Made by a program: the position numbers and the translations under genes. A stretch of 64,000 nucleotides of DNA from a virus, in IMG/VR virus record IMGVR_UViG_3300025669_000021, positions 37,416-101,415 of that record. One strand, written 5' to 3'. A model generated the notes under the pieces. It was not told the DNA's origin, did no database searches, and saw only the letters and a program-made list of their open reading frames with translations. How positions within the stretch are numbered: position 1 is the first letter of the stretch; every line of letters begins with the position of its first letter. Of the stretch, positions 3 to 57,772 are shown piece after piece.

Positions 3-1484
3 ATCCAGATGGAGGCAGATACCAGAGCGGCCAGGATGGATAAGTTTATCCACGATCAGCAAGTAGAGGGCGGTTGGCGGGATGCTTTCTCCGACTTCAT
101 CACCAATTTCGTTACCTTCCCGGCCGCATTTATCAAGGGCCCCATCATCCGTAATCGCTCGGCTCTCGCATATACCTTCGTAAACGGCAAGACCGGCGTG
201 AAGGTTAAGAATGAGATAGCCCAGGAGTTTGAGTGTCCAAGTGCTTTCGACATCTACCCTTCTGCAGGGGCAGTAAGCATGGATGACGGTGATCTGATCG
301 AGAGGATGAGGTACAGCGGAGTCAGTTTGCTCGAAATGAAGGGGCTCCCCGGCTGGAATGACGAGGCGATAGACCTTGTTCTCTCTCTGTATCGTGATGG
401 TGGACTTCGGGAATGGACGGCCATAGACCAAGAGCGATCGGAGCTTGAGGATCACGGCCCAGACCGTATCGAGCAACGCGACTGGATGGAGGCTCTTGAA
501 TACTGGGGCGCCGTATCTGGTGAAACTCTCCAGAAAGAGGGCATGGAGAAGGATATCCACGGCAATGCCATCATTCCTATCATGGAATACGAGATGAACG
601 TCATTCTTATTGGAGATTACGTGGTCTACAGCGGTCTTAACCAGGATCTACTCGGCCGCAGACCATACTCTAAGGCTTCCTGGAGCGTCATTCCCGGGTC
701 ATTCTGGGGCAAGGGTGTCCCTGCGATGATGGCCGACCTACAATCTATCTGTAACGCCACTATCAGGGCTCTAGTGAACAATGAGGCGGTCGGATCTGGA
801 CCCCAGGTAGTCTACAATGATGTAGGAAGGATCCCATCTGGCGAGGATATAACCAATCTCTTCCCTTTCAAGACTCACCAGTTCACAAACCAGATGAACA
901 GCCAGCTAAAGCCTATCGACTTCTTCCAGCCAAAGATAAACGCCGCGGAGCTATTGGGCGTCTATCAGAAGTTTGCCGACATGGCCGACGATTATACAGG
1001 AATTCCGTCATACGCGCATGGAAACGACAATGTTGGAGGGGCCGGCAGGACTATGGGAGGCCTATCCATGTTGATGTCAAATGCTGCGAGGGGGATGAAG
1101 ATGGTGATAGGTCGCGTCGATGACAAGATCATCAGAGACGTGATTATGCGTCAGTTCCATTGGAATATGCTCTTTGAGCCTGATGAGTCCATTAAGGGTG
1201 ACATCGAGATCGTTGCGAGGGGTGCATTGGCTCAGATCGTTAAAGAGTCGATGAATTCCAGACGGGTCGAATACTTGAACGCCACCAATAATGAGACAGA
1301 CAGGATGCTCACGGGGCTGGAAGGACGCAGGTTGGCACTCAAGGAAACAGCTAAATCCTTAGATATCCCCGGGCAACTGGTCAGGAGCAAGGAAGAAGTC
1401 GCAATGTTGGAGCAACAGTTACAGGACGCTCAGATAGCAGCAACTCAAGAAGAAGCCCAGGCACAAGCCGGGGCAGCAGCGTAA
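3..1484 (+). CDS. Portal (head-tail connector) protein, podovirus-like, N-terminus outside window
   Basis: The frame is open to the left edge, so the true start lies outside; 493 residues are visible. In this family the protein forms the dodecameric ring at one capsid vertex through which DNA is packaged and ejected. Support comes from size, from the segment RTMGGLSMLMSNAARG (from about nt 1048) that I associate with short-tail phage portals, from an E/Q/A-rich helical tail typical of portal C-termini, and from the scaffold and capsid genes that follow. A terminase would be expected just upstream and cannot be seen. A second, unrelated lambda-type portal lies at 40966-42705. Confidence 0.75.
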   Translation: MQMEADTRAARMDKFIHDQQVEGGWRDAFSDFITNFVTFPAAFIKGPIIRNRSALAYTFVNGKTGVKVKNEIAQEFECPSAFDIYPSAGAVSMDDGDLIERMRYSGVSLLEMKGLPGWNDEAIDLVLSLYRDGGLREWTAIDQERSELEDHGPDRIEQRDWMEALEYWGAVSGETLQKEGMEKDIHGNAIIPIMEYEMNVILIGDYVVYSGLNQDLLGRRPYSKASWSVIPGSFWGKGVPAMMADLQSICNATIRALVNNEAVGSGPQVVYNDVGRIPSGEDITNLFPFKTHQFTNQMNSQLKPIDFFQPKINAAELLGVYQKFADMADDYTGIPSYAHGNDNVGGAGRTMGGLSMLMSNAARGMKMVIGRVDDKIIRDVIMRQFHWNMLFEPDESIKGDIEIVARGALAQIVKESMNSRRVEYLNATNNETDRMLTGLEGRRLALKETAKSLDIPGQLVRSKEEVAMLEQQLQDAQIAATQEEAQAQAGAAA

Positions 1485-1504
1485 ACAATCAGGAGATACA
1501 GACC

Positions 1505-1990
1505 ATGCAGAAAATGACTAAAGCAGTGATCGCAGTTGGAATCCTTAGCTTATTCGTGGCCGTTGGGGCATTTGCTGACCGTGCAGATTACGGTATCAGG
1601 CTTCTCCGGGTGAAGGAGATACACAAATTCCCCCCTAACACATCAATCTCGGTTGAGGATCCCATTACTTTTTCGGGTTCTATAGCCCAGGCGGCGTCGA
1701 GAACTTTGACTCCTTCGACCGTTACCGGTGCGGCTACCGTTCTTGGTGTAGAAGCTGGAATGATAATCATGGAACCGTCATCGGCTCACGATTTGACGCT
1801 TACGGCCGGTGTCTCTGGACAGGTTGTCACTCTGTTCAATAACTCCGCAGGATCAACGAACATCACGCTCCTATCGGCGGCAGCTACTCATAGATTCAAC
1901 TCCGATATCGTGTTGTCGCAGTATGATTCTATCACTTTGGCCTATCTTGATAGCAAGTGGTCGACCATTGCATCTTCAACGTACAACTAG
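1505..1990 (+). CDS. Small exported virion-like protein with signal peptide
   Basis: 161 residues. The N-terminus is a basic start, a hydrophobic core and an Ala cleavage region (residues 1-24, ending VGAFA), a classic Sec signal peptide. The rest is rich in Ser/Thr/Ala, with a C-terminal half of alternating hydrophobic and polar residues such as SITLAYLDSKW, the style of beta-structured phage fibre or decoration tips. An AGGAG ribosome site lies 9-13 bases before the ATG. It sits between portal and scaffold, an odd place for a secreted protein. Function is unknown; it belongs to the series of exported proteins found in both virion cassettes. Confidence 0.75.
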   Translation: MQKMTKAVIAVGILSLFVAVGAFADRADYGIRLLRVKEIHKFPPNTSISVEDPITFSGSIAQAASRTLTPSTVTGAATVLGVEAGMIIMEPSSAHDLTLTAGVSGQVVTLFNNSAGSTNITLLSAAATHRFNSDIVLSQYDSITLAYLDSKWSTIASSTYN

Positions 1991-2001
1991 GGGATGAACG
2001 G

Positions 2002-2030
2002 GCTCGGGGCTACCTCGCGGGGCCCCGGGC
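2002..2030 (+). other. GC-rich hairpin before a start codon
   Basis: GCTCGGGGC (2002-2010) can pair with GCCCCGGGC-type sequence at 2022-2030 (nine pairs, one G-U) around an 11-base loop. It lies between two genes, ends 10 bases before an ATG that lacks a good ribosome site, and has no T-run, so it could modulate translation or act as a weak attenuator. Confidence 0.4.
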
Positions 2031-2039
2031 TTAATCATT

Positions 2040-2333
2040 ATGCCAAAAGAACAAGACAACAACGAGACGAAGAACCAAAAGGCAATACATCTTGCCGAAG
2101 CGTGTAATAGGCTTATGGGTCAAAGCCAGGATTTTAGGTATTTCGTTGAGGAGTTGACCGAAATGCTTCTCGACCAGAGGGACAAGAACGAAGGATTGCT
2201 TGGCGAGTTGGCTATCGTCGGCAAAGGGATGTCCCTGAACATGAAACAGATTTTGCAGATGATCGATAATTCTTCCGCAGTTTTGGTCAGAGCAAGGGCC
2301 GCGGAAGGAAAACGACTTAACGGATTGAAGTAA
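2040..2333 (+). CDS. Hypothetical protein between portal and scaffold
   Basis: 97 residues, not recognised. It is hydrophilic and probably all-helical: charged, Gln/Glu-rich N-terminus, then helices around LAEACNRLMGQSQDFRYFVEEL and a Met/Leu-rich stretch near residues 60-80. It has no signal peptide or membrane segment. The start is weakly supported because no clear ribosome site precedes it, only the hairpin at 2002-2030. Position in a head-assembly operon suggests a virion or assembly role, which is inference only. Confidence 0.65.
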   Translation: MPKEQDNNETKNQKAIHLAEACNRLMGQSQDFRYFVEELTEMLLDQRDKNEGLLGELAIVGKGMSLNMKQILQMIDNSSAVLVRARAAEGKRLNGLK

Positions 2334-2335
2334 GA

Positions 2336-2440
2336 ATGAAGTGCACACTGAAATGTCAGAGCCGGGGGGGTAAGAAGGCATACATTTATGAGCCGTCTTT
2401 CCTCGTTGGCAAACTACTAACAGAGCATAGGGAGAAATAG
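2336..2440 (+). CDS. Very small protein, 34 aa
   Basis: An ATG two bases after the preceding stop opens a 34-residue frame that fills the gap and ends four bases before the scaffold ATG; the scaffold ribosome site (GGGAG) lies inside it. The peptide is basic, with two Cys (MKCTLKC) and many Lys/Arg/Gly in the first half. The tight fit supports translation; the short length and a modest ribosome site argue for caution. No known family recognised. Confidence 0.45.
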   Translation: MKCTLKCQSRGGKKAYIYEPSFLVGKLLTEHREK

Positions 2441-2444
2441 CACC

Positions 2445-3509
2445 ATGGCACACGAAGTACCAATACCAAGACAAGCCCAACAGGCAGCAGAACAGGATGA
2501 GATAGATCAGGCAGCAGAACAAGAGGCCTTGTCACAGCAAGGAACTCCTGCAGAGCCGGTCCTAGATCATGTGATCGAGCAGCCAGAAGAGGATGAACAG
2601 CCAGCGCCCGTAGCGGCTGCAGTTCCCGACCAAGCTACCCTAGCACCCGCACCAGTAGCGGAAGAGGGTGAACCGGTCGAGAGTCTTGTAGACCTGAAAC
2701 GGAGGCTATTAGAGGCCGAGCACAGAAATCGGACTCTACAAGGCATGATCCATTCTCAGAAGCCAGAGGCCGAAGAAATGGCCGCTCTCAAAGATCGTAT
2801 TGCGGAACTGGAGAATAGACCAGAGGAGCACGTAGCTCCCGCGGAGCCAGGAGTAGCAGCGCATTTGAGATACCTCAATAAAGATGAGCGTGAGGCCGTC
2901 GACGGGGAGGAAGGTTCCCTGGAAGTCAGAATGGCTAAAGGTATGGCAGAAGAGGGCATTGAGAAGGTAAAGCGTGAAGCCGCGCAAGAGGCATTAAAGC
3001 TAACTAGGCGTATAGACGCCATAGAACGCCGTCAGGAAGATGACGATTCAGATAGTGCTGTATCTGGGGTTATGGCCCAGGTCGAAGAGTTGATGCCAGG
3101 AGCGATAAAGATTAACTCCGATATTCTCTGGGTTGATTGGCTTGAAGGTGCTGATCCCGAAAGCGCGACAGGAGCAACGTATGGGGCAAAAGGACAGGCT
3201 CTTATGGCGATTGGCGATACCAAGGGTATTGTCGATTTGATGAACAAATTCCTGGCAGACGTGCCCGAGGCGTCAGACCAGATTAAGGCACAGATTCGAC
3301 CCGCAAAGTCGAGCGTAGTGCCAACTGAGGGGAAACCCGTAAAGAAACAGGGTATTCCAGAGTCTAGGGCGGTTGCTTTCTACAAGGCACAGAGGGAAGG
3401 TCGGCTGAAAAACGCTGATGGTTCTCCTATGTCTGCAGAACAGGAAGTAGCCCAAGAAGCATTAATAGATAAGGCCTACGTTGAGGGACGAATCCTAGAA
3501 GGCAGGTAG
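2445..3509 (+). CDS. Capsid scaffold protein
   Basis: 354 residues, immediately upstream of the major capsid gene, the standard place for a scaffold. The protein is very acidic and Gln/Glu/Ala/Pro-rich for the first 90 residues, then has coiled-coil-like helices (about 75-125 and 165-200) and a basic C-terminal end (KQGIPESRAVAFYKAQREGR). Scaffolds drive procapsid assembly and leave before DNA packaging. Scaffold sequences diverge fast, so the call rests on position, charge and coiled coils, not on a motif. Confidence 0.75.
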   Translation: MAHEVPIPRQAQQAAEQDEIDQAAEQEALSQQGTPAEPVLDHVIEQPEEDEQPAPVAAAVPDQATLAPAPVAEEGEPVESLVDLKRRLLEAEHRNRTLQGMIHSQKPEAEEMAALKDRIAELENRPEEHVAPAEPGVAAHLRYLNKDEREAVDGEEGSLEVRMAKGMAEEGIEKVKREAAQEALKLTRRIDAIERRQEDDDSDSAVSGVMAQVEELMPGAIKINSDILWVDWLEGADPESATGATYGAKGQALMAIGDTKGIVDLMNKFLADVPEASDQIKAQIRPAKSSVVPTEGKPVKKQGIPESRAVAFYKAQREGRLKNADGSPMSAEQEVAQEALIDKAYVEGRILEGR

Positions 3510-3548
3510 TTTCCTGTCGGCGCGTGGGTCTGGAAAGAGAGAGACATT

Positions 3549-4493
3549 ATGGGAAGTGCATATCCAGAAGCAGCAGGTATCCGAGACATCGGCACGTCGA
3601 CAATGAAGTACATCCCCACTATTTATAGTGGTAAGATGCTCGTCAAGTTCTACACGAACACAGTATTTGGGGCTATCTCCAATACTGATTACGAAGGCGA
3701 GATCAAGGCTCAAGGTGACACGGTTGAGATCCGCTCTCTGCCTGACATCACGATCAATGATCATACCAAGGGAATGACCCTTGACTACGAGCAGCCCGTG
3801 GCTACTCCGGTAACTCTAGAGATCAACAAGGGCAAAACGTGGTCATTCGCCACGAACATCGTTGATGATGCCCAGACTGATCTCAAGCAGTACCATGATC
3901 AGTGGTCGGAAGTCGCAATGCGCCAGATGAAGATAAGCATTGATAGAGATGTGTTGGCAACCATCTACACCGACCCTGATTCTTCGAATGAGGGTAACTC
4001 GGCCGGTCTGATCAGTGCCAACATCGCGCTTGGAGCCGATGGTGGTGTTTCGGTCCCAATGACCAAATCTGATGTAGTCGATAAGATTGTCGAGTGCGGT
4101 CAGGTTCTCACCGAGCAGGACGTCCCGGAAGAAGGTCGCTGGATGGTTATACCAGCATGGATGTGTACGCTCATCCTGACATCGGACCTCAAGGACGCTT
4201 CCTTGAGTGGTGACGGCACCTCGATGCTCAGAAACGGGCGCCTGGGAATGATTGACACATTCACGCTCTACAAGAGCAACCAGTTGAAGACCACGGCCGA
4301 CTCTTCGGCCAACACCTGCACATTCATCATGTTCGGGACCAACCACGCGGTTACATTCGCCTCTCAGATAGTGGAGAATGAAAACCTCAAGAACCCTAAC
4401 TCCTTCGGAACCTTGTTCCGTGGGCTGCAGGTTTACGGGTTCAGGACAGTCAAACCGGAAGCTCTGGGCGCCCTGTACGCCTACAAGGCCTAG
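3549..4493 (+). CDS. Major capsid protein, cassette A
   Basis: 314 residues. The sequence has the look of podovirus-type HK97-fold capsid proteins: an N-terminal segment running into TNTVFGAISNTDYEGEIKAQGD, the strand IRSLPDITINDHTKG near residues 60-75, then LTEQDVPEEGRWMVIPAWM near 195-213. An upstream scaffold and downstream adaptors fit. It is unrelated in sequence to the fused protease-capsid protein at 42695-44896, so the window encodes two different capsid lattices. Followed by a strong hairpin, as expected for the most highly expressed virion gene. Confidence 0.85.
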   Translation: MGSAYPEAAGIRDIGTSTMKYIPTIYSGKMLVKFYTNTVFGAISNTDYEGEIKAQGDTVEIRSLPDITINDHTKGMTLDYEQPVATPVTLEINKGKTWSFATNIVDDAQTDLKQYHDQWSEVAMRQMKISIDRDVLATIYTDPDSSNEGNSAGLISANIALGADGGVSVPMTKSDVVDKIVECGQVLTEQDVPEEGRWMVIPAWMCTLILTSDLKDASLSGDGTSMLRNGRLGMIDTFTLYKSNQLKTTADSSANTCTFIMFGTNHAVTFASQIVENENLKNPNSFGTLFRGLQVYGFRTVKPEALGALYAYKA

Positions 4494-4504
4494 TTGTAAA
4501 CCGC

Positions 4505-4537
4505 GGGGGCTTGCCAAGTGGTGAGCCCCCTTCTTTC
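4505..4537 (+). terminator. Intrinsic terminator or attenuator after capsid gene
   Basis: GGGGGCT (4505-4511) pairs perfectly with AGCCCCC (4524-4530) around a 12-base loop and is followed by TTCTTTC. It lies just after the capsid stop codon and is probably partly read through, since head and tail genes continue on the same strand. Confidence 0.7.
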
Positions 4538-4584
4538 ACCGCAGAGTAAACGATTCGATTAACCCTCCTAAAGGAGAAAACATC

Positions 4585-4986
4585 ATGGCAGTTGACACTT
4601 CAATCACAGTACAGACTGGTGCAGCAGACACCGGCAAAAAGGTAGTGGTCTATCAGCGTCTCATCGACTTCTCGGCAGACAATCTATCCGATGGTGACTG
4701 GTTCGACCTGTTCCAGATGCCTACCGCGGCCGTTGTCATTGGTGGCGCTTCTGATCTGGTCTTGACCGGAACCGCAAGCTCAACCTTCGACGTAGGAGTT
4801 GAAGGCGGGGCCGAACTGTTGAGCGCAACCACGCTTGACGGCACTACTGGCACCATCACGGCCTTTACGGCCACCGTTGGCGTTGTCTTCGACGGCACCA
4901 CGATCGACGTTTCGATCAACACCGCTGCCGCTGTACTCGGAAAGCTCCGAATTACTGCGATAGTTGCATATTGTGACGCACTGTAG
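4585..4986 (+). CDS. Small virion protein, possible capsid decoration
   Basis: 133 residues with a strong ribosome site (AAAGGAG, 9 bases before ATG). No signal peptide. The body is Thr/Ala/Gly/Val-rich with alternating residues (for example DLVLTGTASSTFDVGVEGG), suggesting an all-beta fold. Directly after the capsid gene, framed by two hairpins, so it is likely highly expressed; head decoration proteins often occupy this place. No specific family recognised. Confidence 0.65.
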   Translation: MAVDTSITVQTGAADTGKKVVVYQRLIDFSADNLSDGDWFDLFQMPTAAVVIGGASDLVLTGTASSTFDVGVEGGAELLSATTLDGTTGTITAFTATVGVVFDGTTIDVSINTAAAVLGKLRITAIVAYCDAL

Positions 4987-5008
4987 AGAGCGTTGCGGCT
5001 GATCATCT

Positions 5009-5038
5009 AAGCGGGGTGAGGAAACTCCTCCCCCGCTT
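5009..5038 (+). terminator. Strong hairpin, likely attenuator
   Basis: AAGCGGGG (5009-5016) pairs with CCCCGCTT (5031-5038), and an inner GAGG/CCTC pair extends the stem to a five-base loop. Followed by TTAGCC, so the T-run is weak. Placed after the decoration-like gene. Confidence 0.5.
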
Positions 5039-5068
5039 TAGCCGCGTCTCTACCCACTTTTCATACCT

Positions 5069-5090
5069 CAACCCTATGTCGGGGTTGTTT
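5069..5090 (+). terminator. Weak second hairpin before 5116 gene
   Basis: CAACCC (5069-5074) pairs with GGGTTG (5082-5087) around a seven-base loop and is followed by TTT. With the hairpin at 5009-5038 it makes a tandem pair in the 129-base gap. Short stem, so low certainty. Confidence 0.3.
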
Positions 5091-5115
5091 CAACATCAGA
5101 GCAAGGAGTTATATC

Positions 5116-5655
5116 ATGGGTACAGAATCAGCAGGTTTGTGGTGCAGGAAGAACGGCACCGATCAGGTTTATCAGTTTCGTGAGGATATGAGGCCGCGTC
5201 TCGGTCTTGACCTTGTTATGGTCGACTATCCCAGCGCAATGGCTCTCAGGGCCCGTAGCGACTCCAAGAATCGCAAGGAAAGCAAGGGCCAGAATGATGC
5301 TCATGCCCAGGCGGCTTTCGAAGAGGCGAATGGCGTTGTAGCGGCCGTGGTTGTCAAGCCGGCTGATCCAGGCAAGTTTGTCGATCAGCAAGAAGTCGAT
5401 GCTTCCGGTGAAGTCTCTGCAGTGGCAGACCTTGACCTCAAGCCCCAGACTCCAGAAGAGGCGATGGCCGATATCAATGCTGCAAGCGGCGATGATGACG
5501 GCGTTAAGATGACTGACGGTCTGGCAGATATGTCACGACGAGAGTTGTTTGTCATCATCACCGAAGAGGAATTGCCCGTTAAGAAGGTTGGCAAAAACCC
5601 TCAGATCGTTGAAAACATACGCGCGGCCAGGGCAGCAGCCCCAGCAAGCGAGTAG
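5116..5655 (+). CDS. Hypothetical head protein with SAP/Rho-N-like tail
   Basis: 179 residues, acidic in the middle (residues 75-140), with a C-terminal 40-residue helix-extended-helix motif (MSRRELFVIITEEELPVKK then VENIRAA) like the SAP, HeH or Rho-N DNA- or RNA-binding motifs of phage head and neck proteins. Ribosome site AAGGAG is well placed. Situated between the decoration-like gene and the head-tail adaptor, so a neck or head-completion role is likely; the exact job is not known. Confidence 0.6.
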   Translation: MGTESAGLWCRKNGTDQVYQFREDMRPRLGLDLVMVDYPSAMALRARSDSKNRKESKGQNDAHAQAAFEEANGVVAAVVVKPADPGKFVDQQEVDASGEVSAVADLDLKPQTPEEAMADINAASGDDDGVKMTDGLADMSRRELFVIITEEELPVKKVGKNPQIVENIRAARAAAPASE

Positions 5656-5667
5656 GGAGAGTGATCT

Positions 5668-6015
5668 ATGGCGGTGCTGGTATCGGAAGTATTGACAGAG
5701 GCAAGACAGCAGCTTAACGACTCTACGGCTACCTATAGGTGGTCCGATGCAAGTCTTATGCTATATATGAGCCGAGGCGTTGATGACGTCTACGGTGACT
5801 TTCCTGAGTCTTTCTTTATCGATGGCGAGAAAATACCGATATCAGCGCCAGAGGCCATAACCGCAGTGACCGAGGACTTCCCTCTCAGGAAGGAATACAT
5901 AGAAGCCATTGTCCACTACATCTGTTGGAAGGTGTTCGGGGAAGACACCGAGGATGACGGTAATATCGCTCTTTCGAAGGACCACGCGAAACAATATATG
6001 CAAGCTAGGGGTTAG
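5668..6015 (+). CDS. Head-tail adaptor protein (DUF6682-like)
   Basis: 115 residues. The N-terminal pattern EARQQLNDSTATYRWSDASL followed by an amphipathic helix is what I recall for the phage adaptor family DUF6682, which docks under the portal. Size and position (after the capsid block, before the connector at 6018) agree. Two bases separate it from the next gene, so the pair is probably translationally coupled. Confidence 0.65.
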   Translation: MAVLVSEVLTEARQQLNDSTATYRWSDASLMLYMSRGVDDVYGDFPESFFIDGEKIPISAPEAITAVTEDFPLRKEYIEAIVHYICWKVFGEDTEDDGNIALSKDHAKQYMQARG

Positions 6016-6017
6016 GC

Positions 6018-6623
6018 ATGATCAACAAATACTCGGATTTCTATGAATTCATGCTTGAAGACCTTCCTCGCTGCCCCGAGCCGTTGAAGCTGCAGCAACT
6101 CAAGCAAGCCTTTCGTGAATTTGCTTTCAGGACCGAGAACTGGACCGCAACCCTCGATAAAGTCAATCTGGTAGCAGATCAGCAAGACTACACCCTCCGT
6201 CTTCCCCAGGATGGCCTTGTCAAGCGGTTGGTATGGGTGAATATCAGTGATGCAGCAATGCCTACCAATCAATACGAGCTCCGCAACGAGTATTCTCTCC
6301 GATGGAAGAAGACCCCTGTCAGCTACGTTCCCACCTACTCTCTCGATGACGGGCTCCAGGTCAGGGTAGCAATGTATCCGGATTGGGATTCTAGGACCGT
6401 TGACGAGAACTATTTCACCCGATGGGGGGATGCAATCCTCAATCTGGCGCTCTACCGTCTCCTGATGATGCCCGGAAAGACTTGGACACATCCCGAGTTG
6501 GCCGTCCAGAAGAAGGATATCTATGATGTTTTCTATAATGACGCGATCAAAGAGAAGTACACCGAAGGTAAAAGTGGTTCACTGTCCGTAAATCTACGGC
6601 CGGTTACGAGGAGATTTGCATAA
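6018..6623 (+). CDS. Head-tail connector / tail-stem protein
   Basis: 201 residues. The pattern of an N-terminal helix (LQQLKQAFREFAFRTENWTATLD), then a beta segment (ADQQDYTLRLPQDGLVKRLVWV) and a helical C-terminal half (AILNLALYRLLMMPGKTW) resembles short-tail phage neck or tail-tube-A-like proteins that sit between portal adaptor and nozzle. Its stop overlaps the start of the exported fibre-like gene. Confidence 0.6.
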   Translation: MINKYSDFYEFMLEDLPRCPEPLKLQQLKQAFREFAFRTENWTATLDKVNLVADQQDYTLRLPQDGLVKRLVWVNISDAAMPTNQYELRNEYSLRWKKTPVSYVPTYSLDDGLQVRVAMYPDWDSRTVDENYFTRWGDAILNLALYRLLMMPGKTWTHPELAVQKKDIYDVFYNDAIKEKYTEGKSGSLSVNLRPVTRRFA

Positions 6624-9223: not shown

Positions 9224-9411
9224 TGAAAAATCTAATCCCCATATTGCTGATTGCCATTGCCCTATCAAGTGGCTGCACTATGCCTAGCATGGTCTATCAG
9301 CGCACTAACGATATAGGACAGGTATACAACGTAGATGCCCGATGGTGGGCCGTGACTAAGGAAATAGGCAAAGCTGGAATGACCGTCGGAGCATTCATCA
9401 TCGCATTCTAA
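9223..9411 (+). CDS. Small lipoprotein
   Basis: 62 residues, starting at the ATG that overlaps the fibre stop. Residues 1-18 are a hydrophobic signal ending LSSGC, a lipobox-like cleavage site with Cys at position 18. A second weakly hydrophobic stretch closes the protein (AGMTVGAFIIAF). Small phage lipoproteins of this size can be outer spanins or superinfection-exclusion proteins; neither is shown here. A longer in-frame start at 9202 is less likely because it would bury the signal peptide. Confidence 0.6.
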   Translation: MKNLIPILLIAIALSSGCTMPSMVYQRTNDIGQVYNVDARWWAVTKEIGKAGMTVGAFIIAF

Positions 9412-48393: not shown

Positions 48394-48405
48394 AAAGGGA
48401 GAAGG

Positions 48406-49735: not shown

Positions 49736-50310
49736 TGGATGTGCAGTACACAACTGGCGATGATGGATTCACAAGAGGGGAATCGCTCTTGAATAGGATC
49801 ACGATATGGGCAACACGCAAGAAGAGTGAAGCTGACACCCTTGCCAGCCACCAATTCAAATTCATCGACCAAGAGAACATCATGGAGGCGACACGGAAGG
49901 GTGTCAGGAAGATTACATGGAAGCAGAAGCAGGAAGAGATGGAAGCCAACGGGGTGGAGTGGTGTGTGGTCGGGAGAGTGCATCCAGTAGTGCCATCGGA
50001 TGTGATGGTGTGGAAAGGGGAGATCCTGAAAATGGTGGGCTTCCCATATTCCAAGAGTGAGTTGGTGTTGGCATTCATGGATGGCATGGTGTCGAAAGTC
50101 ACAGGAAGAGATTTCCTATTCTTCCGAAAGATGGGAGATATCTCGAACAGCAGACGGATCTGCTCAAAGGCCGCAAATATCCCTGATCTTATCATGGGCT
50201 TCCTTCCTCGGCAAGCAGAATACTTTTCGCCTGATGGGACCTGGGATTACAAAATCGAGCGACCATATACATGGAAGGTCAAAGCACATAGCAATGGGTG
50301 GTATCGATGA
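49735..50310 (+). CDS. Permuted papain-fold (YiiX/NlpC-P60-like) hydrolase, putative
   Basis: 191 residues from the ATG in TGATG overlap. Order of residues is permuted: TGDDGFTRGES near the start, SHQF (His39), IMEATRKGV (Glu51) and ICSKAAN (Cys143). This is the YiiX/lecithin retinol acyltransferase-like circular permutation of NlpC/P60. Such enzymes act on amide or ester bonds of cell wall or lipids. Together with the peptidase at 47941 it frames the holin-like gene. Confidence 0.5.
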   Translation: MDVQYTTGDDGFTRGESLLNRITIWATRKKSEADTLASHQFKFIDQENIMEATRKGVRKITWKQKQEEMEANGVEWCVVGRVHPVVPSDVMVWKGEILKMVGFPYSKSELVLAFMDGMVSKVTGRDFLFFRKMGDISNSRRICSKAANIPDLIMGFLPRQAEYFSPDGTWDYKIERPYTWKVKAHSNGWYR

Positions 50311-50666
50311 CCTTTGACAAAACATTTTTTGAGACAGATTTGAAGAACGTCATCGCTGATGACCCTATCGAAATTGAGTTGGAGCAGACTAGCGAAAACG
50401 AGAAGCACAACGGGATCAAATCATCATTGATAAATGCCCAGGACATCGTAGCAGCCGGTCTCTCCAACTCATATCTCTTTTCGGTGACCATCCTCATAAG
50501 CGATTGGGATGTATTGCCCCAGGTAGACGATATCCTAATCATCGAGGAAGTGCGCTATGCAGTGATGAGGAGGGGCAAGGATTCTGTAGACATCGGCTTG
50601 AGGGTGGATCTTGCTGCCGAGAATGATAGTGGATCGACAGGCCCGGCATATATGGGGAGGCTGTAG
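50307..50666 (+). CDS. Head-tail connector (stopper-like) protein
   Basis: 119 residues from the ATG overlapping the preceding stop. Short, with strand-rich C-terminal half (ILISDWDVLPQVDDILIIEEVRYAVMR), a pattern of gpFII/SPP1 gp16-like stoppers, as expected between capsid and tail genes. Family match not verified. Confidence 0.5.
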   Translation: MTFDKTFFETDLKNVIADDPIEIELEQTSENEKHNGIKSSLINAQDIVAAGLSNSYLFSVTILISDWDVLPQVDDILIIEEVRYAVMRRGKDSVDIGLRVDLAAENDSGSTGPAYMGRL

Positions 50667-50667
50667 C

Positions 50668-51180
50668 ATGGCTAGTGGCATGAAAATAAAATGGGATCTA
50701 ACAAAGATCTTCACGCAGTTTTCTATGATGAAGAAAGCGAATACTACATCGGCAACAAGATTCGTTCAGTTCCAAGCAAAGTCTTTGGTGAGGGCATTGG
50801 CCTTTCATACTCCCATTGCTCCCATGACAGTGGAAATACCAGTGAAGGCAAGAGATGGCAAGCGGAGATATTATCCCGGCGTACCGATGGAGAGGGTGAA
50901 GGTTGATCCAGGTCGGGCGAGGTCGGGATGGTGGCCGACAGCAATCAAGTTAGGGGTGACAAGCGTCTACAGTAAATTCCCAAACAAAGGCGAGGGTGAT
51001 GTAGTCGATCAATCGCAGAGCATTAGAAATCCGCACATCATCATGACCAATACTGTGCCATACATTCTGAGGATCAAGGGACACGGGCAATGGGCGGAAG
51101 CTGCGTTGAATCAGGAACGCACACGCTTGCCACAAAAACTATTCGGAGAGTACCAAAAGGGATTCGCGGCATGGCTTTAG
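50668..51180 (+). CDS. Tail completion protein (HK97 gp10 / lambda gpZ-like)
   Basis: 170 residues. ALAFHTPIAPMTVEIPVK ... DPGRARSGWWPTAIKLG ... PYILRIKGHGQWAEAALNQ is the shape of neck proteins of the gp10/gpZ group, with a helix then a hairpin and a basic RSGWW turn. Overlaps the tail-terminator-like gene by ten bases. Confidence 0.55.
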   Translation: MASGMKIKWDLTKIFTQFSMMKKANTTSATRFVQFQAKSLVRALAFHTPIAPMTVEIPVKARDGKRRYYPGVPMERVKVDPGRARSGWWPTAIKLGVTSVYSKFPNKGEGDVVDQSQSIRNPHIIMTNTVPYILRIKGHGQWAEAALNQERTRLPQKLFGEYQKGFAAWL

Positions 51181-51650
51181 AATCGATCAACATCGAGACA
51201 CGGGTGGAGTTAGCAGTCCTTGAGTTATTGAAGGCTGATGCTGCAATCGTGTCATCTGTCGGAACAGCCGCACAGATCAATGTTGCCTACACATATTCCA
51301 CGACAGGGACAGAGATGGTATTGCCAGCCATCTATGTGCAAATGGTAGGATTCACAGAGAGGACGAACCGGACCGGGTGGTACATAGGAACACTACGGCT
51401 TGGGGCTGTCACAAGAAAGGCAAAGGATAAAGATACACAGACGGTGAAGAACATCTTGGGATATCTCAGGGGATGGGTGCAACAAGATGATCTAGCCGAG
51501 CAGATTACAAACAGTGTTTCAGCGGCACCGGGAACTAATCAGCTAACGTGTACTGATATCCGCTTGGATGGACCTACGGTGGATTTCTCCGCAGGTAAAA
51601 TGAATGAACTGGCAATCGAACCGTCGTGCCTTGTGAGGCCTTCGAAATGA
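51171..51650 (+). CDS. Tail terminator-like protein
   Basis: 159 residues. N-terminal helix (RVELAVLELLKADAAIVSSV), PAIYVQMVG strand and a long helical hairpin (TQTVKNILGYLRGWVQQ) followed by CTDIRLDGPTVDF: the usual layout of tail terminators such as lambda gpU or DUF3168. Position before the tail tube agrees. Confidence 0.5.
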   Translation: MALESINIETRVELAVLELLKADAAIVSSVGTAAQINVAYTYSTTGTEMVLPAIYVQMVGFTERTNRTGWYIGTLRLGAVTRKAKDKDTQTVKNILGYLRGWVQQDDLAEQITNSVSAAPGTNQLTCTDIRLDGPTVDFSAGKMNELAIEPSCLVRPSK

Positions 51651-51672
51651 TTGCTACGAGGGAGGCATATCG

Positions 51673-52029
51673 ATGACACAAAGACTAGGTGATTCGCGCT
51701 TGGAGTTCGGCTCGACAGACGAAACTTGGGGATTGATCCAATCAATCAGTTCCGAGGAAGTCGTTGAAGAGTCGCCAGCGCGAGATGGCAGCAATGATAT
51801 TGTTGCCGTTGAGCAGACTAACAAAATGAAGAATGTATCGTTCCAATATATTTATCGGAATCAGGATACAGGAATCTCCCCAACTTCCAATGTAGGAAAT
51901 GGGACACAGATCACATTCCAGACCAGTGGGGACATCATCTACATCAAGTCCTGCACACAGGATTGGTCAAATGGCGATTGGCGGCAGGTAAGTGGTGAAG
52001 GATCACAGTGGCCTAATCTGAATTCATAG
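51673..52029 (+). CDS. Tail tube-like protein
   Basis: 118 residues, beta-rich, starting after a good GAGGGAGG site. SRLEFGSTDETWGLIQSISSEE ... KNVSFQYIYRNQDTGI ... TFQTSGDIIYIKSC could form the tube fold, though it is shorter than typical gpV. Could alternatively be a small accessory tail protein. Confidence 0.4.
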   Translation: MTQRLGDSRLEFGSTDETWGLIQSISSEEVVEESPARDGSNDIVAVEQTNKMKNVSFQYIYRNQDTGISPTSNVGNGTQITFQTSGDIIYIKSCTQDWSNGDWRQVSGEGSQWPNLNS

Positions 52030-52050
52030 GCATAAAAAAGGAAACACGAA

Positions 52051-52317
52051 ATGAGTGTAATAAACACGACAGAACTTCCTCTCATTGCAAAGTTAATGAG
52101 AGATCCGAATTGCAAGATGCTTGGCAATAGGCAAGTGGTGATCAGAAATCGCCCGCTAGTGGAATTCAAATTTGAAATCCAAGACCAAACAGTGATCGAG
52201 GAGTTCCAGACAGGGGCCGATGGTTTGGCCTCCTATGAGCATTGCAGAAGGTTAGTGATCCGAATGATTAGCGATCTGCAGAAAGATAGAAGAACACCAG
52301 AAACGAAAGAGGTATAG
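52051..52317 (+). CDS. Hypothetical small tail-region protein
   Basis: 88 residues, with an alternation of strands and helices (NRQVVIRNRPLVEFKFEI then YEHCRRLVIRMISDLQKDRR). AAAGGAA precedes the ATG. Between tube-like gene and chaperone, so a tail assembly role is likely. Unrecognised. Confidence 0.55.
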   Translation: MSVINTTELPLIAKLMRDPNCKMLGNRQVVIRNRPLVEFKFEIQDQTVIEEFQTGADGLASYEHCRRLVIRMISDLQKDRRTPETKEV

Positions 52318-52321
52318 AGTT

Positions 52322-52861
52322 ATGAGTGAAGAACAAAAAGAAACAGCAGGGGACCTGGAAGAGAGATCCCAACACATCGACTCCGGCACACAGGCTAGTG
52401 CGTCTGAGAAGGTCGAGCAGTTGAATGAAGAGGAACAGAAGGCGTCAGAGGAAAGCATTGCAGAGACACATGATGCGTTGATCTCTCCTGATATTCAGAT
52501 TAAAGGATGTTCCATAGACATACCGAGGATCACGGCAGCATCTATGTATCTTCTCAGCAAGATGAAGTCACCCCTAGCAGGAACCGATAGCCCGGACGGG
52601 AAGGTATCCATAGAGATGGATGAAATGCTAGAAGCACTTTATGTGATCATCAACCAAAACGATCCGAGGATCTTAGAAAAGATTGGTGATCCGAATGCTA
52701 TGCAACGTGCAGTCTATGAGTTGACCCGCACCATCCCACTTGAACAAGTGCCGATTGTCTGTGCAGCACTTGGACAGCAGATGTCACTTGTCCACCAAGC
52801 AGCAGAAGAGGAAGGGCTGGCAGGTGGTGATAAGGGGGAAGCAAGTGGCTCATCAACCTAA
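52322..52861 (+). CDS. Tail assembly chaperone (lambda gpG-like)
   Basis: 179 residues. Acidic, Glu/Ser-rich head, then helical core (DIPRITAASMYLLSKM, MLEALYVIINQND, MQRAVYELTRTI) and a Gly/Ser tail. It lies directly before the tape measure, the place of lambda gpG. Near its end the codons AAG GGG GAA contain a five-G run, and a second frame opens there (52834-53076), so a -1 shifted product is likely. Confidence 0.7.
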   Translation: MSEEQKETAGDLEERSQHIDSGTQASASEKVEQLNEEEQKASEESIAETHDALISPDIQIKGCSIDIPRITAASMYLLSKMKSPLAGTDSPDGKVSIEMDEMLEALYVIINQNDPRILEKIGDPNAMQRAVYELTRTIPLEQVPIVCAALGQQMSLVHQAAEEEGLAGGDKGEASGSST

Positions 52862-53076
52862 TAGGCATACTCCTCTCGCAGTTCCATGGTGGGCCTGCAG
52901 AGATGAGAGCTTGGTTGCATGAGCCGATCATCATTGTCTTCCGATTAGTCGGGCAGCTTATGAGAAAGAACGAACCGGATAAGGAAGGGGGAGCAAATAT
53001 GAATGTGAAGCCATCTGCACCTAACCTTGTCGAGTTGGAAAATATGTTCCAACAGCACTTAGCATCTAAGGGGTAG
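52834..53076 (+). CDS. Shifted extension of tail chaperone (gpGT-like T domain)
   Basis: In the -1 frame relative to the chaperone, an open frame begins right after a TAA at 52831 and reaches TAG at 53074. The 28-base overlap with the chaperone frame is the only place a shift can occur and contains GGGGG (52834-52838). The product (LINLIGILLSQFHGGPAEM ... PNLVELENMFQQHLASKG, 80 codons) has no good start of its own and ends five bases before the tape measure ATG, as in lambda G/GT. Confidence 0.6.
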   Translation, partial: GGSKWLINLIGILLSQFHGGPAEMRAWLHEPIIIVFRLVGQLMRKNEPDKEGGANMNVKPSAPNLVELENMFQQHLASKG

Positions 53077-53080
53077 GACA

Positions 53081-55657
53081 ATGGCATTGCAACTGCAAGC
53101 AGTGGTGTCCCTGAACTCGTCGCAGTTCGGGAAAGGCATCGGCAAGCTACAGCAGGGAGTGAGCAACGCAACAGGGGCCATGGCTATGGCCTTCGGTGGT
53201 GTGACTGCTGAAATCTTGATGATGGGCAGAGCATTCGGGCCTGTCGGTGCAGCAGTTGCAGTGTTAAAATCTGTGGTGGCTGTCGGTGCGCCACTAGAGA
53301 GTTCTATGGCCCAGGTGGCAGGTGTAACAGGTCTATATGGTGATCAGTTAGAAAGAGTGACGCGCAATGCCAGGGATATGGCAAAGACAACCAAGTTTAC
53401 AGCCAATGAAGCAGCACAGGCTCTCTATGCTTTAGGAAGTGCCGGCCTTTCTACTGCCGATGATCTGGAAAGCACATTGGAACCTGTTTTGAAGTTGGCA
53501 GGTGCAACAATGTCAGAGACAGGAATGGTTGCGGAGTCGATCACATCAACCATCCAGAATCTTGGTCTTGAATTCAGTGACTCAACAAAGGTGGCGGATC
53601 GTTTTGCTGCGGCAATTGCCAAGAGCCCCGTGACTATGGAAAGGATGGCCGATGCCATTAAGTTTGCTGCACCAGTGGCAGGTGCATTCGGGATGTCGCT
53701 CGACCAATTGACTACAGAACTTGCTGCATTCCATCTCGCCGGATTCAAAGGAACAATGGCCGGAACAGCATTCCGTAATGTGATGCTGGATCTGGCAAAA
53801 AAAGCTGAGGAGGGGTCGGGCAAGGTAGGGAAAGCCTTGAAGAATTGGGAAGCAGGAACAGAGGGCATCACGGGGGCCGTAGAACGGCTTGAGAGGAAGG
53901 GGGTTACATCTCAAGAGGTAATGCTAGAGCTAGGGAAGAGAGCCGGTACAGGTCTCGCTGGCATGATGAATTTGGGAAGCATAGCCATTAAGAAATTGGC
54001 ACTCAGTATGGATGGTGCGAAAACGGCAGCAGAAATGTATGAGTTGCAGATGGCGACCCTGGAAGGGCAGACAGCAAGATTCAAAAGTGCGATGGAGGAA
54101 GTCGGGTTGCAGATCTATGATGTCCTCCGTGGCCCAATGACAGGGATTGTATCCACACTGGCAGACATGGCATCTGGTCTGGGAGATTTCTTGGCATACC
54201 TCGCAGCAGATCCAGGCGAAGCATTCTTTAAACTAGGCGTGGATCTGGTGGATCTGGTGGATCGGTTCAATGAATTCCTTGAATTAGATGCCGGAGATCT
54301 ATGGAGCAATTTCAAAGATGCAGGAGTACAGGCATTTGCTGATATCCAAGATTTCTTTCGGGGAGATTTTTGGACAAACCTGATGGATGCTCTGGCAGAA
54401 ACTGCGAGCATAGCTTTCGATGAGATCAAAGACACCTTTACGGGAGATTGGTGGGAGCCATTGCTCGATACGTTTGTTGATGTATGGGATGAGATCATCC
54501 GAGTCGGGAAGGATCTGCTAGGACAATTATGGTCGATCCTGGTCGATATCGATTGGCAGGGTGCATGGAACCAATTGAAGTTCGCAGCATCGATGGTAAT
54601 GTTACAGGTGTTACAGAATCTCATTTCATGGACAAAGCAAATCGGTAAAGTGTTCACCAATATAAATTGGGCCGGACTATGGAAGGATCTTGCAGACGTA
54701 GCTGGCATAGCTTTCGATGCCGTTCGGGATGTATTCAAAAAAGGATGGTGGAAGCCATTGCTCGATACCTTCATCAATACATGGAAAGTGATCAGGGTAC
54801 TCGGCAGAGGATTCATACGAGCCATGATGAAGCGAATCAAGAAAATCGATTGGCAGGGTGCATGGAATCAGATGAAATTCGCTTTCTGGAAAGTGCTGAA
54901 TACAATATTTCGCGCACTAAAGCCATGGATAGATGCCGTCACCAAGAAATTTAAGGCCATCGACTGGAAGGAACTCTGGAAAGATGTTTGGTTTGAATTC
55001 GGGAAAGCATTACGCAAGGCAACCAAGAAAGTGGTGCAATGGTTCAAAGAAGCCAAAGAATATTTCGGCAAGAAGGGGCCAGGTCTATGGGATAAGTTGA
55101 AGACGGCCGCCGATTTTGTATGGAAGGCAATCACCGTTGCCTTCCATGAGTTTATGCGTGGATTGCTCGGTGATAAAAAAGCAGCAGAGTTTTTCGCTGC
55201 CTGGGCGATCATGTGGGATGATTGGAAAAAGAAAGCAGAAGATACTTGGGCTGAATTATTCTCGGCGTGGGATCTGACCAAAGCCGTATGGATAGAGATG
55301 GGCCGTGTGATGTCTGAGGAAGTATGGCCGGAAGCGTTCAGATTATGGGAGCAAGCAAAACCGTTGTTTAAAACTCTGATGAGTGGCATGACATTGCAAG
55401 TCAACGTGCTAGTTGCTGCATTGAAAGCCATGATGAAGATATGGAAATGGTTCGGCGAGAAGCGGAAAGAATTTAAAGAGGAACACACCGAAGCAAAATG
55501 GCAGGAGTATCTGAATGATCAAGGCTTCAATTTAAATGGTGGCGAGTTGAATGTAAACATCCCGGAGTTCAAAGGCGTTGCGAATGAACTCACATTGAAA
55601 ACTATCCTCACCACCATGCTAGGGATGAAAGGGCTTATCTGGAGCGAAGCAGTATGA
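53081..55657 (+). CDS. Tape measure protein
   Basis: 858 residues. The N-terminal third holds the core of phage minor tail/tape measure proteins: AFGPVGAAVAVLKS, MAKTTKFTANEAAQALYALGSAG, FAAPVAGAFGMSLDQLTTELA, FRNVMLDLAKKAEEGSGKVG. The rest is helical with two 99-residue repeats (434-532, 533-631) carrying WWxPLLDTF and IDWQGAWNQ. At roughly 0.15 nm per residue, as for lambda gpH (853 aa), a tail of about 130 nm is expected. Immediately follows the G/GT-like genes. Confidence 0.9.
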   Translation: MALQLQAVVSLNSSQFGKGIGKLQQGVSNATGAMAMAFGGVTAEILMMGRAFGPVGAAVAVLKSVVAVGAPLESSMAQVAGVTGLYGDQLERVTRNARDMAKTTKFTANEAAQALYALGSAGLSTADDLESTLEPVLKLAGATMSETGMVAESITSTIQNLGLEFSDSTKVADRFAAAIAKSPVTMERMADAIKFAAPVAGAFGMSLDQLTTELAAFHLAGFKGTMAGTAFRNVMLDLAKKAEEGSGKVGKALKNWEAGTEGITGAVERLERKGVTSQEVMLELGKRAGTGLAGMMNLGSIAIKKLALSMDGAKTAAEMYELQMATLEGQTARFKSAMEEVGLQIYDVLRGPMTGIVSTLADMASGLGDFLAYLAADPGEAFFKLGVDLVDLVDRFNEFLELDAGDLWSNFKDAGVQAFADIQDFFRGDFWTNLMDALAETASIAFDEIKDTFTGDWWEPLLDTFVDVWDEIIRVGKDLLGQLWSILVDIDWQGAWNQLKFAASMVMLQVLQNLISWTKQIGKVFTNINWAGLWKDLADVAGIAFDAVRDVFKKGWWKPLLDTFINTWKVIRVLGRGFIRAMMKRIKKIDWQGAWNQMKFAFWKVLNTIFRALKPWIDAVTKKFKAIDWKELWKDVWFEFGKALRKATKKVVQWFKEAKEYFGKKGPGLWDKLKTAADFVWKAITVAFHEFMRGLLGDKKAAEFFAAWAIMWDDWKKKAEDTWAELFSAWDLTKAVWIEMGRVMSEEVWPEAFRLWEQAKPLFKTLMSGMTLQVNVLVAALKAMMKIWKWFGEKRKEFKEEHTEAKWQEYLNDQGFNLNGGELNVNIPEFKGVANELTLKTILTTMLGMKGLIWSEAV
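54380..54973 (+). repeat. Two 297-base repeats in tape measure
   Basis: Units 54380-54676 and 54677-54973 align with matching codons such as ATTGGCAGGGTGCATGGA at 54552 and 54849 and CCATTGCTCGATAC at 54457 and 54754. Sequence divergence shows an old duplication. A shorter third IDWKELWKDV copy follows. Confidence 0.75.
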
Positions 55658-56331
55658 GTGGATACACAGGAGCAATGATCGGTGGATTTAATGAAGGGGG
55701 AAAGCAGTTCATTGATGATCCGCAGGGTGGCGTGTATGGGACAGATGATGTCCGCGAATTGATAGGGACGGTCAGGAATGAAACAGTGATCCGCCGAGTG
55801 GCTTGCCTCAAGGGAGTCGCCCCAGATGTGGCTAACTCATTGAGGGGAGAGACAGGACAGCTACAAATCTTTGTCGGGAAAGATTCTCCGATCCAGTATG
55901 GTGAAGGGTGGAGGATGAATCAGATCAATCCCAGCAACATCGGACCATCGGCAATGATGTTCTCTACCGTGTATGAGAGGGAGAGGCAAGGAACCTGGGA
56001 CTTCGATCTGCCATCCAATGTCGCGTTGGGGTGGGCTGCAGGAGTCGTCACAGTGTCTTACAATGGTGTGCCGATGGAATCCTGGGATAGTGGGAGGGCT
56101 ACAGAGGAAGACGCATTCCTGATCCGTATGACAGCACGGGTGGTCGATACAGACACAGTGAAGGTAAGTCTTGCCGCCAATGGAGTAGCGATGTCAGATT
56201 GGAATCTACCAGCCCCGGAGAAGCTAGACCCGGAGAACATAGCCGATCATCGGTGTCGATGGGTGGAGAATGGTACAACCATCCAATTGATGTTGCTCAA
56301 TGTAGCTCTTTATGAATGGACATCTTCCTGA
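55654..56331 (+). CDS. Tail tip-associated protein
   Basis: 225 residues with ATGA overlap to the tape measure. Beta-rich and Gly-rich (PSNVALGWAAGVVTVSYNG). No signal peptide and no Cys motif of NlpC type. Position right after the tape measure fits a distal tail or baseplate component of lambda-like siphoviruses. No family recognised. Confidence 0.5.
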   Translation: MSGYTGAMIGGFNEGGKQFIDDPQGGVYGTDDVRELIGTVRNETVIRRVACLKGVAPDVANSLRGETGQLQIFVGKDSPIQYGEGWRMNQINPSNIGPSAMMFSTVYERERQGTWDFDLPSNVALGWAAGVVTVSYNGVPMESWDSGRATEEDAFLIRMTARVVDTDTVKVSLAANGVAMSDWNLPAPEKLDPENIADHRCRWVENGTTIQLMLLNVALYEWTSS

Positions 56332-56645
56332 TGGCACAATGGAGAAACATAATCCCTAAAGCCATTGCTGCACCGCTGATCATAAAGCTGTCGCAGATCC
56401 GTCTAGTGTTTAATGCTTTGATCGAATTGCAGAACAGGGCGGTGGTCGATGTTCAAGTTGAGGCGACAGCCAATCTCACCGTAAGGAATTCCGAGGGCAT
56501 AGTTACGATCGGAGGGGGCGGGAGTGATGTCGATCCTGCCGGGGCGTTGCTCTATCAAGTCTACCAGATCACCGCCGTCAGTGGCGACACATCCATTCGC
56601 ACGGTTGGTTTTGATTGGGTAAGGTTCCACGCTACTGAGGAGTAA
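56331..56645 (+). CDS. Small tail protein
   Basis: 104 residues from the ATG in TGATG overlap. N-terminal helix (PKAIAAPLIIKLSQIRLVFNALIELQNRA), then strand-rich ending with GGGGSDVDP. It probably belongs to the tail tip together with its neighbours. Function unknown. Confidence 0.5.
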   Translation: MAQWRNIIPKAIAAPLIIKLSQIRLVFNALIELQNRAVVDVQVEATANLTVRNSEGIVTIGGGGSDVDPAGALLYQVYQITAVSGDTSIRTVGFDWVRFHATEE

Positions 56646-57772
56646 TGAGCACACCTTTCACAGATCCCAATGTTGATGGATTTGATCCTTTCGATCTCGA
56701 CACAGCCAATCAGATCAGAATTGCCTGGGGAGAGAGAAAAGAGATCATCCAAGAAACCAATGATGTGGTCCCCTTTGTCGTCGGTGATGATGCACATGAA
56801 ATTGCCACCTGGAATGATATGCAGGATTGGATCGAGACAACAGTTGTCAATGCAGATCCTGATGCTTCCGAATGGGTGTGGATAGATCCAACCATTGACC
56901 CGGCAGGAGATTCGGGATTCACTCCCATCACAAGCCTTGCCCAATTCAGGACGATTGCCGGAATGAATGCCAGTGGCTTCCGAAGGGTGGAGGAGTGGGA
57001 TGGAGAAAGCACACCGATCTATTCATTTGGGAATGCAGAAGCGGGTGACGTTTTTGGGACGTGGATTTATGAGGATCTAATCAATGCCTTCTCTGCATTG
57101 AAATGGGTTCGGCATAGGGGAGTAGTACCGACAACATCAACCCGCCCGCACACAGCCGGGGATATCGTCAAGTTGACCGAGAGAAAGTATGGCTCAACTC
57201 AAATAGCCACCACCGATTGTGCGGCAGCACGGGCATCAGCTGTTTCTGATTTCGGCTCTGCATCGTGGAGCAATGATGGGTTAGGCGCAACCGATCAGTT
57301 CAGTAGGCCACAAAACTATGGGACAGCAGTGATCGGGTTTGAAGTGACGGTGTATGGCGCCGGGTTCAGTCCGAGCAATGATCTCTATTACCATGAGCAG
57401 AGGACAAGAACCACATGGGAGTCGGTAGTGCAAGCGAGTGCTCTGGGGAGGGTCGTGGAGGTATACCTGATCCCGAGATGGTTTGCATTCAGTGTGATTG
57501 ATCCGGCCAACACGCCCATATATAATGATCTCGATGCAAAGGGGTGGACAGAGGGGGAGATGTATCTGGAAAAGGCATGGACAGAAGATGTGGCGGCTAC
57601 CCACACATATCTTTATGCGGCTTATGCAGGAGCAGCATTGTCTGATCCATTGGATCTGATCCCGCTAAGTTGCCCGTGGACTCTCGGTGTCAATGCAGGA
57701 ACAAGCCAAGGGCTATCAGCATATTCACCAGGGATGCTGTACAAATGGAATTGCACAAACGAAGGAACATAA
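56645..57772 (+). CDS. Distal tail/baseplate-like protein
   Basis: 375 residues, no signal peptide, many Trp/Tyr/Asp (SEWVWIDPTIDPAGD, LGRVVEVYLIPRWFAF). Overlaps its upstream neighbour by one base. Last structural-looking gene before the glycosyltransferases, so probably the tail tip or receptor-binding protein. I do not recognise a domain. Confidence 0.5.
   Translation: MSTPFTDPNVDGFDPFDLDTANQIRIAWGERKEIIQETNDVVPFVVGDDAHEIATWNDMQDWIETTVVNADPDASEWVWIDPTIDPAGDSGFTPITSLAQFRTIAGMNASGFRRVEEWDGESTPIYSFGNAEAGDVFGTWIYEDLINAFSALKWVRHRGVVPTTSTRPHTAGDIVKLTERKYGSTQIATTDCAAARASAVSDFGSASWSNDGLGATDQFSRPQNYGTAVIGFEVTVYGAGFSPSNDLYYHEQRTRTTWESVVQASALGRVVEVYLIPRWFAFSVIDPANTPIYNDLDAKGWTEGEMYLEKAWTEDVAATHTYLYAAYAGAALSDPLDLIPLSCPWTLGVNAGTSQGLSAYSPGMLYKWNCTNEGT

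What the first reader, a model, noticed from the sequence alone, without database searches (positions are those of the whole stretch)
3..57772. Two complete, unrelated capsid and tail cassettes on one strand
Cassette A (1-26.7 kb) has a short-tail phage portal, scaffold, capsid, adaptors, nozzle and internal proteins. Cassette C (40.7-57.8 kb) has gpW, a lambda-type portal, a fused protease-capsid, G/GT and tape measure. The two portals and capsids share no visible sequence. Both run on the + strand with the same overlap style, similar exported proteins and a DUF3820 gene in each half. GGCGCC seems frequent before 40 kb and rare after (only one noticed), which suggests different origins. Possible meanings: a hybrid phage that builds two particle types, a phage with a captured second virion module, two neighbouring prophages, or a chimeric assembly.
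Basis: partly seen in the sequence, partly recalled or inferred. Interest (0 to 1): 0.88.

Follow-up and report, generated by a model that had tools for sequence, protein, structure and literature searches.

The report
Two whole phage genomes joined
The sequence holds the complete genomes of two unrelated bacterial viruses, one inserted whole into the other; the join is recent or artificial and is unlikely to be a single virus that evolved to build two kinds of particle, but only raw reads can show whether the joined molecule exists.

Summary
The two virion cassettes are real. The window is the last 64 kb of a 101,415-bp IMG/VR record, and the whole record shows two complete phages rather than two cassettes. 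Phage C (45.3 kb: record 1-20.0 plus 76.1-101.4 kb) is a lambda-type siphophage with its own gpA terminase, exonuclease, replication gene, gpW, portal, protease-capsid and tape measure. Phage A (56.1 kb: record 20.0-76.05 kb) is a podophage with an integrase and its own terminase, portal, capsid, internal proteins, exonuclease and replication gene. k-mers and palindrome content switch sharply at both boundaries. The A/C join in the window is at ~38.65 kb, not 40.4-40.8 kb. Relatives of A are stand-alone phages of 53-61 kb and prophages, mostly in Gammaproteobacteria; the listed relatives of C are mostly 27-49 kb (one 86 kb). No other contig found spans either join, and one 100%-identical contig begins just past it. 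The joins share no exact repeat longer than 11 bp and the record has no Ns, so a k-mer misassembly is hard to explain. A recent cointegrate and a chimera remain about equally likely. A working two-particle phage is improbable but not excluded.

The parts
1..38640 (+). Window part of phage A (record 20.0-76.05 kb)
   Evidence: 4-mer component, Markov log-odds and palindrome density
38625..38670 (.). Join J1, A to C. The tail of a C protein (...GRDCVDCMKPECDKGSVPTDKGVNK*) has no start of its own here, so a C gene is probably cut
   Evidence: log-odds minimum at record 76077 = window 38662; last A-type palindrome at record 76013; reading frames
38670..64000 (+). Right part of phage C (record 76.1-101.4 kb); C continues at record 1-20.0 kb
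9..1484 (+). A portal, C-terminal 491 aa of a 683-aa protein that starts at record 36848
   Evidence: tblastn to HMO-2011-type portals; full frame
3549..4493 (+). A major head protein
   Evidence: phrog_267, 2.4e-54
6018..6623 (+). A virion structural protein, adaptor-like
   Evidence: phrog_437, 6.1e-19
9853..11937 (+). A internal virion protein
   Evidence: phrog_511, 2.3e-119
15593..26287 (+). A 3564-aa polyvalent protein: methylase-like, Strawberry-notch helicase parts and LPD38
   Evidence: PF13872, PF13871, PF18857; DNA methyltransferase PHROGs
26887..27792 (+). A DNA methylase
   Evidence: PF01555, 2.4e-47
27846..28973 (+). A tyrosine integrase, the only one found in the record
   Evidence: PF00589
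30737..31792 (+). A phrog_3657 protein of unknown function, common in other phages, possibly a single-strand annealing protein
   Evidence: 1.3e-103; function inferred from neighbouring exonuclease; phage hits
31891..32487 (+). A exonuclease
   Evidence: phrog_298, 2.4e-14
35361..36206 (+). A DUF2303 protein
   Evidence: PF10065, 8.6e-52
36664..37461 (+). A replication initiation protein
   Evidence: phrog_270, phrog_9327
39533..39730 (+). C PF12843 (DUF3820-type) gene, first copy
40700..40969 (+). C gpW-like head-tail protein
   Evidence: phrog_118, 5.2e-6
40966..42705 (+). C lambda-type portal
   Evidence: phrog_21, 1.9e-78
42695..44896 (+). C fused protease and major capsid protein
   Evidence: phrog_4523, 4.3e-129
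44926..45303 (+). C head decoration protein
   Evidence: phrog_122, 1.6e-14
52322..53076 (+). C probable G and T tail-assembly frames
   Evidence: overlapping second open frame; no family match for G
53081..55657 (+). C tape measure protein
   Evidence: phrog_1533, 1.3e-48; PF10145
61370..61576 (+). C PF12843 (DUF3820-type) gene, second copy

Best explanation
The 101-kb record is two complete, autonomous and unrelated phage genomes. Phage C is a lambda-type siphophage of about 45 kb. Phage A is a probably temperate podophage of about 56 kb that lies as one uninterrupted block inside C's array of small early genes. Shown: each block has its own terminase, portal, capsid, exonuclease and replication gene and its own composition, and the blocks change at record ~20.0 and ~76.05 kb. 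Inferred: the join is recent and arose by illegitimate or short-homology recombination between phages in one cell, probably helped by their own recombination proteins. The result is a cointegrate that neither capsid is likely to hold whole, not an evolved dual-virion phage.
For: Two terminases, two portals and capsids, two exonucleases and two replication genes. Sharp switches in 4-mers, log-odds and palindromes with no blending. A C-only gene-junction motif on both sides of A. Block sizes match stand-alone relatives: A 53-61 kb, C mostly 27-49 kb. A-type portals also occur in bacterial genomes, and of 25 such genomes searched only five had a C-type portal; in the three cases whose positions can be compared it was on another contig or about 300 kb away. 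For a physical join: no exact repeat longer than 11 bp between the joins, no Ns, and a chimera would need two separate misjoins.
Against: No reads, and no independent contig found spans either join: L004 lies wholly in A and L005 begins at window 38734, just inside C. Both begin exactly at a start codon, which suggests trimming by a provirus caller, and A's early genes should not have been trimmed as host (inference). Chimeras make up as much as about 5% of large contigs in simulated viromes (PMC5610896). A cointegrate would have to outnumber both parents at the joins to be assembled.
Confidence: 0.46

Rival explanations
1. Assembly or library chimera: A and C are separate phages in the same lake, joined only in the contig.
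For: Each phage is complete by itself and of typical size. The identical independent contigs hold A only or C only. L005 begins 70-110 bp past the join. The join appears to cut a C gene. Published base rate of chimeras (PMC5610896).
Against: Joins share no exact repeat longer than 11 bp, so a k-mer graph has no obvious path between them; no Ns. Two misjoins are needed, placing A once and whole with no duplicated or repeated ends. A 25-bp exact motif copy exists at record 16.46 and 76.12 kb, but palindromes keep record 16.46-20.0 kb in C.
Confidence: 0.4
2. A working hybrid phage: one replicon that uses both capsid and tail systems and makes two particle types.
For: Both virion and packaging sets look intact and lie on one strand. 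One relative of the C head type has an 86-kb genome, so a larger C head is not impossible. The matching 17-bp ends lie 102 bp before the C small terminase gene, where a lambda-type cut site would be.
Against: Composition and palindromes have not blended. Terminase, exonuclease and replication functions are duplicated. The join appears to cut a C gene. Most listed relatives carry about half as much DNA. No related genome with both systems linked. The 17-bp end lacks cos-like dyad symmetry.
Confidence: 0.07
3. Two prophages, neighbouring or nested, in one bacterial chromosome.
For: A has a tyrosine integrase and relatives of its portal lie in bacterial chromosomes. An O-antigen ligase gene with no match in the phage collection lies at the other join.
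Against: The integrase is about 10 kb from one edge of A and 45 kb from the other. No att-like repeat flanks A. No integrase was found in C. The record ends in C on both sides with matching 17-bp ends, not in host genes.
Confidence: 0.05

Closest known systems
HMO-2011-type podophages (Puniceispirillum phage HMO-2011, Roseobacter CRP phages, Pelagibacter HTVC103P/104P) and Rhizobium RHph_TM phages: for block A
   Same: Portal and, for RHph_TM phages, terminase homology; genome size 53-61 kb
   Different: Portal only 28-32% identical; A has an integrase and no DNA polymerase was seen among the A proteins scanned. Nearer portals (about 44%) are in genomes of Halomonas, Salinicola and relatives
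Lambda-type siphophages with gpA terminase and fused protease-capsid (Paenibacillus phage Pd_22F, Faecalibacterium phage FP_Epona, Dulem virus 34): for block C
   Same: gpA terminase, portal and protease-capsid, with gpW-sized gene and tape measure
   Different: About 25-32% identity. In Pd_22F terminase, small gene, portal and capsid are contiguous; in C an early block of 17 kb plus phage A lies between terminase and gpW
Helper-embedded PICI satellites (PMC10111431)
   Same: A mobile element lying inside another phage genome and interrupting one of its genes
   Different: A is a complete phage, not a satellite; no att repeats flank it and its integrase is not at its edge
Chimeric contigs of viral metagenome assembly (PMC5610896)
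   Same: Two unrelated genomes in one contig
   Different: No shared repeat at the joins and one genome whole inside the other

Membership tests
HMO-2011-type podophage (block A) | homologous portal and major head protein in the same order | tested here: met
   Portal 28-32% over 94-96% in phages; head protein phrog_267; portal-capsid order shared with bacterial genomes
HMO-2011-type podophage (block A) | family A DNA polymerase in the early region (own knowledge of the group) | tested here: not met
   No polymerase family among the larger A proteins scanned with Pfam or PHROGs
Lambda-type siphophage (block C) | gpA-type large terminase | tested here: met
   PF05876 and PF20454
Lambda-type siphophage (block C) | gpW, portal, protease-capsid, decoration, tape measure in order | tested here: met
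Lambda-type siphophage (block C) | terminase directly upstream of gpW and portal | tested here: not met
   record 779-2797 against record 78115; early genes and A lie between
Lambda-type siphophage (block C) | cos ends next to the small terminase gene | tested here: inconclusive
   17-bp matching ends 102 bp before the gene, but no dyad symmetry
Phage integrated by site-specific recombination into another phage | integrase at the edge and att repeats at both joins | tested here: not met
Assembly chimera | shared repeat at both joins | tested here: not met
   longest shared exact string 11 bp
Assembly chimera | change of depth or absence of spanning reads | not testable with these tools
   no reads available
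Assembly chimera | no independent contig spans a join | tested here: inconclusive
   only two identical contigs found, neither spans a join

The most novel reading that the evidence does not exclude
A real 101-kb phage replicon that carries two complete, unrelated capsid, tail and terminase systems and is released as two different particle types, or as two separable phages from one molecule.
Probability: 0.07. Interest if true: 0.9.

Novelty: new variant of a known kind. Interest (0 to 1): 0.4.

Why it matters
If the join is physical, it is a rare snapshot of one phage genome taking up another whole, close to the raw event behind phage mosaicism, and it asks how a molecule with two packaging systems is packaged. 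If it is a chimera, it shows that a 101-kb viral record without Ns can hold two complete viruses, which would mislead taxonomy, host prediction and genome-size statistics.

Tried and rejected
- Boundary at 40.4-40.8 kb: rejected. Composition, palindromes and the C motif place it at ~38.65 kb. Contig L005 spans 40.4-40.8 kb at 100% but starts after the true join, so it does not test it.
- A DUF3820 gene in each half as a sign of kinship: rejected, both copies are in C.
- A integrated by its own integrase: no att repeats, integrase internal.
- Figure-eight misassembly through the CCGACA motif: the 25-bp exact match is with record 16.46 kb, but the palindrome map keeps 16.46-20.0 kb in C (1 site in 3.5 kb). 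Log-odds there are intermediate, so this is disfavoured, not excluded.
- Contigs bridging both phages: none. IMG/VR scans with portal A, portal C, gpA terminase, last gene, O-antigen ligase, PAPS reductase, replication gene and the motif gave only L004 and L005 as identical contigs, plus unrelated hits. A genome scan with the A integrase found nothing.
- Literature on phages with two structural sets or fused phage genomes: no precedent found in the open-access library.
- CsrA as regulator of the C motif: several motif copies lack GGA, so not pursued.
- cos ends: position fits, dyad symmetry does not; left open.
- A-type and C-type heads linked in a host genome: not seen.

Full report
What the window is. 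The window is bases 37416-101415 of a 101,415-bp IMG/VR record; record coordinates are window plus 37415. An identical contig (L004) comes from the Ace Lake, Antarctica, co-assembly 3300035698. A second (L005) comes from metagenome 3300005915, whose source I could not confirm. The record begins and ends with the same 17 bases, 102 bp before the small terminase gene. This means either a closed circle or cut ends; a cos-like dyad was not found.

Observation. Both cassettes are real. Outside the window each phage has its own large terminase: a gpA type at record 779-2797 and a second type at record 35016-36581, the latter with a small terminase at record 26698-27336 (phrog_4044). The A portal is full length (683 aa) once the record upstream is read. 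A comparison of the 76 A and 76 C open frames found only three weak pairs by phmmer: a secreted protein, a methylase and the start of the replication protein. Each half has its own exonuclease. So this is two whole phages, not two cassettes.

Where the blocks meet. The first principal component of 4-mers separates record 1-~20 kb and ~76-101 kb (C) from ~20-76 kb (A). A Markov log-odds places the A-to-C change at record 76077. Fifteen 6-bp palindromes, chosen on the block cores, occur at 0-1.0 per kb across C and at about 2.4-6.5 per kb in the A stretches tabulated (one 1.7-kb stretch at 0.6), with changes at record ~20.0 kb and 76.02-76.1 kb. A gene-junction motif has 13 strong copies, all in C: record 16.4-20.0, 76.1-76.9 and 99.2 kb. 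At J1 the tail of a C protein...GRDCVDCMKPECDKGSVPTDKGVNK*, is open upstream for only 33 codons, so J1 most likely cuts a C gene. C is therefore about 45.3 kb and A about 56.1 kb, and A lies inside C's small-gene array. The O-antigen ligase at record 20002-21717 has A-type palindromes but follows a C motif, so J2 could also lie just after it.

Relatives. A-type portals occur in stand-alone phages of 53-61 kb and, at about 44% identity and in order with the capsid, in genomes of Halomonas, Salinicola and others. C-type heads and terminases occur mostly in phages of 27-49 kb, with one of 86 kb and one of 59 kb among the listed hits. Of 25 genomes with an A-type portal, five also have a C-type portal. 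In the three cases whose positions can be compared it is on another contig or about 300 kb away; for the others the contigs could not be matched. So the two systems do not normally travel together.

Is the join physical? For: the joins share no exact repeat longer than 11 bp, there are no Ns, and a chimera needs two separate misjoins that place A once and whole. Against: the only identical independent contigs lie wholly in A (L004, record 26326-45036) or begin just inside C (L005, window 38734-44596). Both begin exactly at a start codon, which suggests that a provirus caller trimmed them; if so, what lay left of L005 did not look viral, which fits A's early genes poorly. That last step is inference. 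Simulations put chimeras at under about 5% of large viral contigs (PMC5610896). I judge a physical cointegrate and a chimera about equally likely.

What it most likely is. Two autonomous phages brought together recently. The lack of compositional blending, the cut C gene and the duplicated terminase, recombination and replication functions argue against a long-evolved phage that builds two particles. The integrase does not explain the join: it lies about 10 kb inside A and no att repeats flank A.

Side point. A carries a 3564-aa polyvalent protein with methylase-like, helicase and LPD38 parts and a separate DNA methylase. Proteins of this sort are linked to protection from restriction (own knowledge of the DarB type). 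This may be why A does not avoid palindromes while C does; that is inference.

Noticed in passing
window 38702-38737, 39095-39116, 39515-39552, 61740-61762; record 16.4-20.0 kb (L002): 13 gene junctions in block C share CCGACA-n-AAGGAG(G)TGAAT before the next start codon. Read in frame, most copies give the upstream open frame a common C-terminal tail (x-P-T-x-x-G-x-K or similar). Some copies could form a hairpin over the ribosome-binding site. Function unknown.
   Followed up: partly
record 21753-22037, minus strand (L003:1753-2037): A CsrA-family gene at the end of a minus-strand operon in block A, next to join J2 (PF02599).
   Followed up: no
record 20002-21717 (L003:2-1717): An O-antigen ligase with TPR repeats, no match in the phage collection, preceded by a C-type motif but with A-type palindrome content; a possible surface-altering passenger gene.
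   Followed up: partly
window 15593-26287: A 3564-aa polyvalent protein with methylase-like, Strawberry-notch helicase and LPD38 parts in block A.
   Followed up: partly
whole record, block C: Block C strongly lacks many 6-bp palindromes (CCCGGG, GGGCCC, GACGTC, AAGCTT and others) that block A does not lack, suggesting different exposure to restriction.
   Followed up: partly
G030:C2:58651-88446 (L106-L108): A bacterial MAG contig has an A-type head cassette with MoxR-type ATPase and DUF2201 homologues of C's early genes some 14-17 kb away on the other strand, so these early genes accompany both phage types.
   Followed up: no
window 57762-60545: Glycosyltransferase-like and Methyltransf_24 genes after the C tail genes, in addition to a TAGT glycosyltransferase at record 3783-4556; possible DNA or surface modification.
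   Followed up: no
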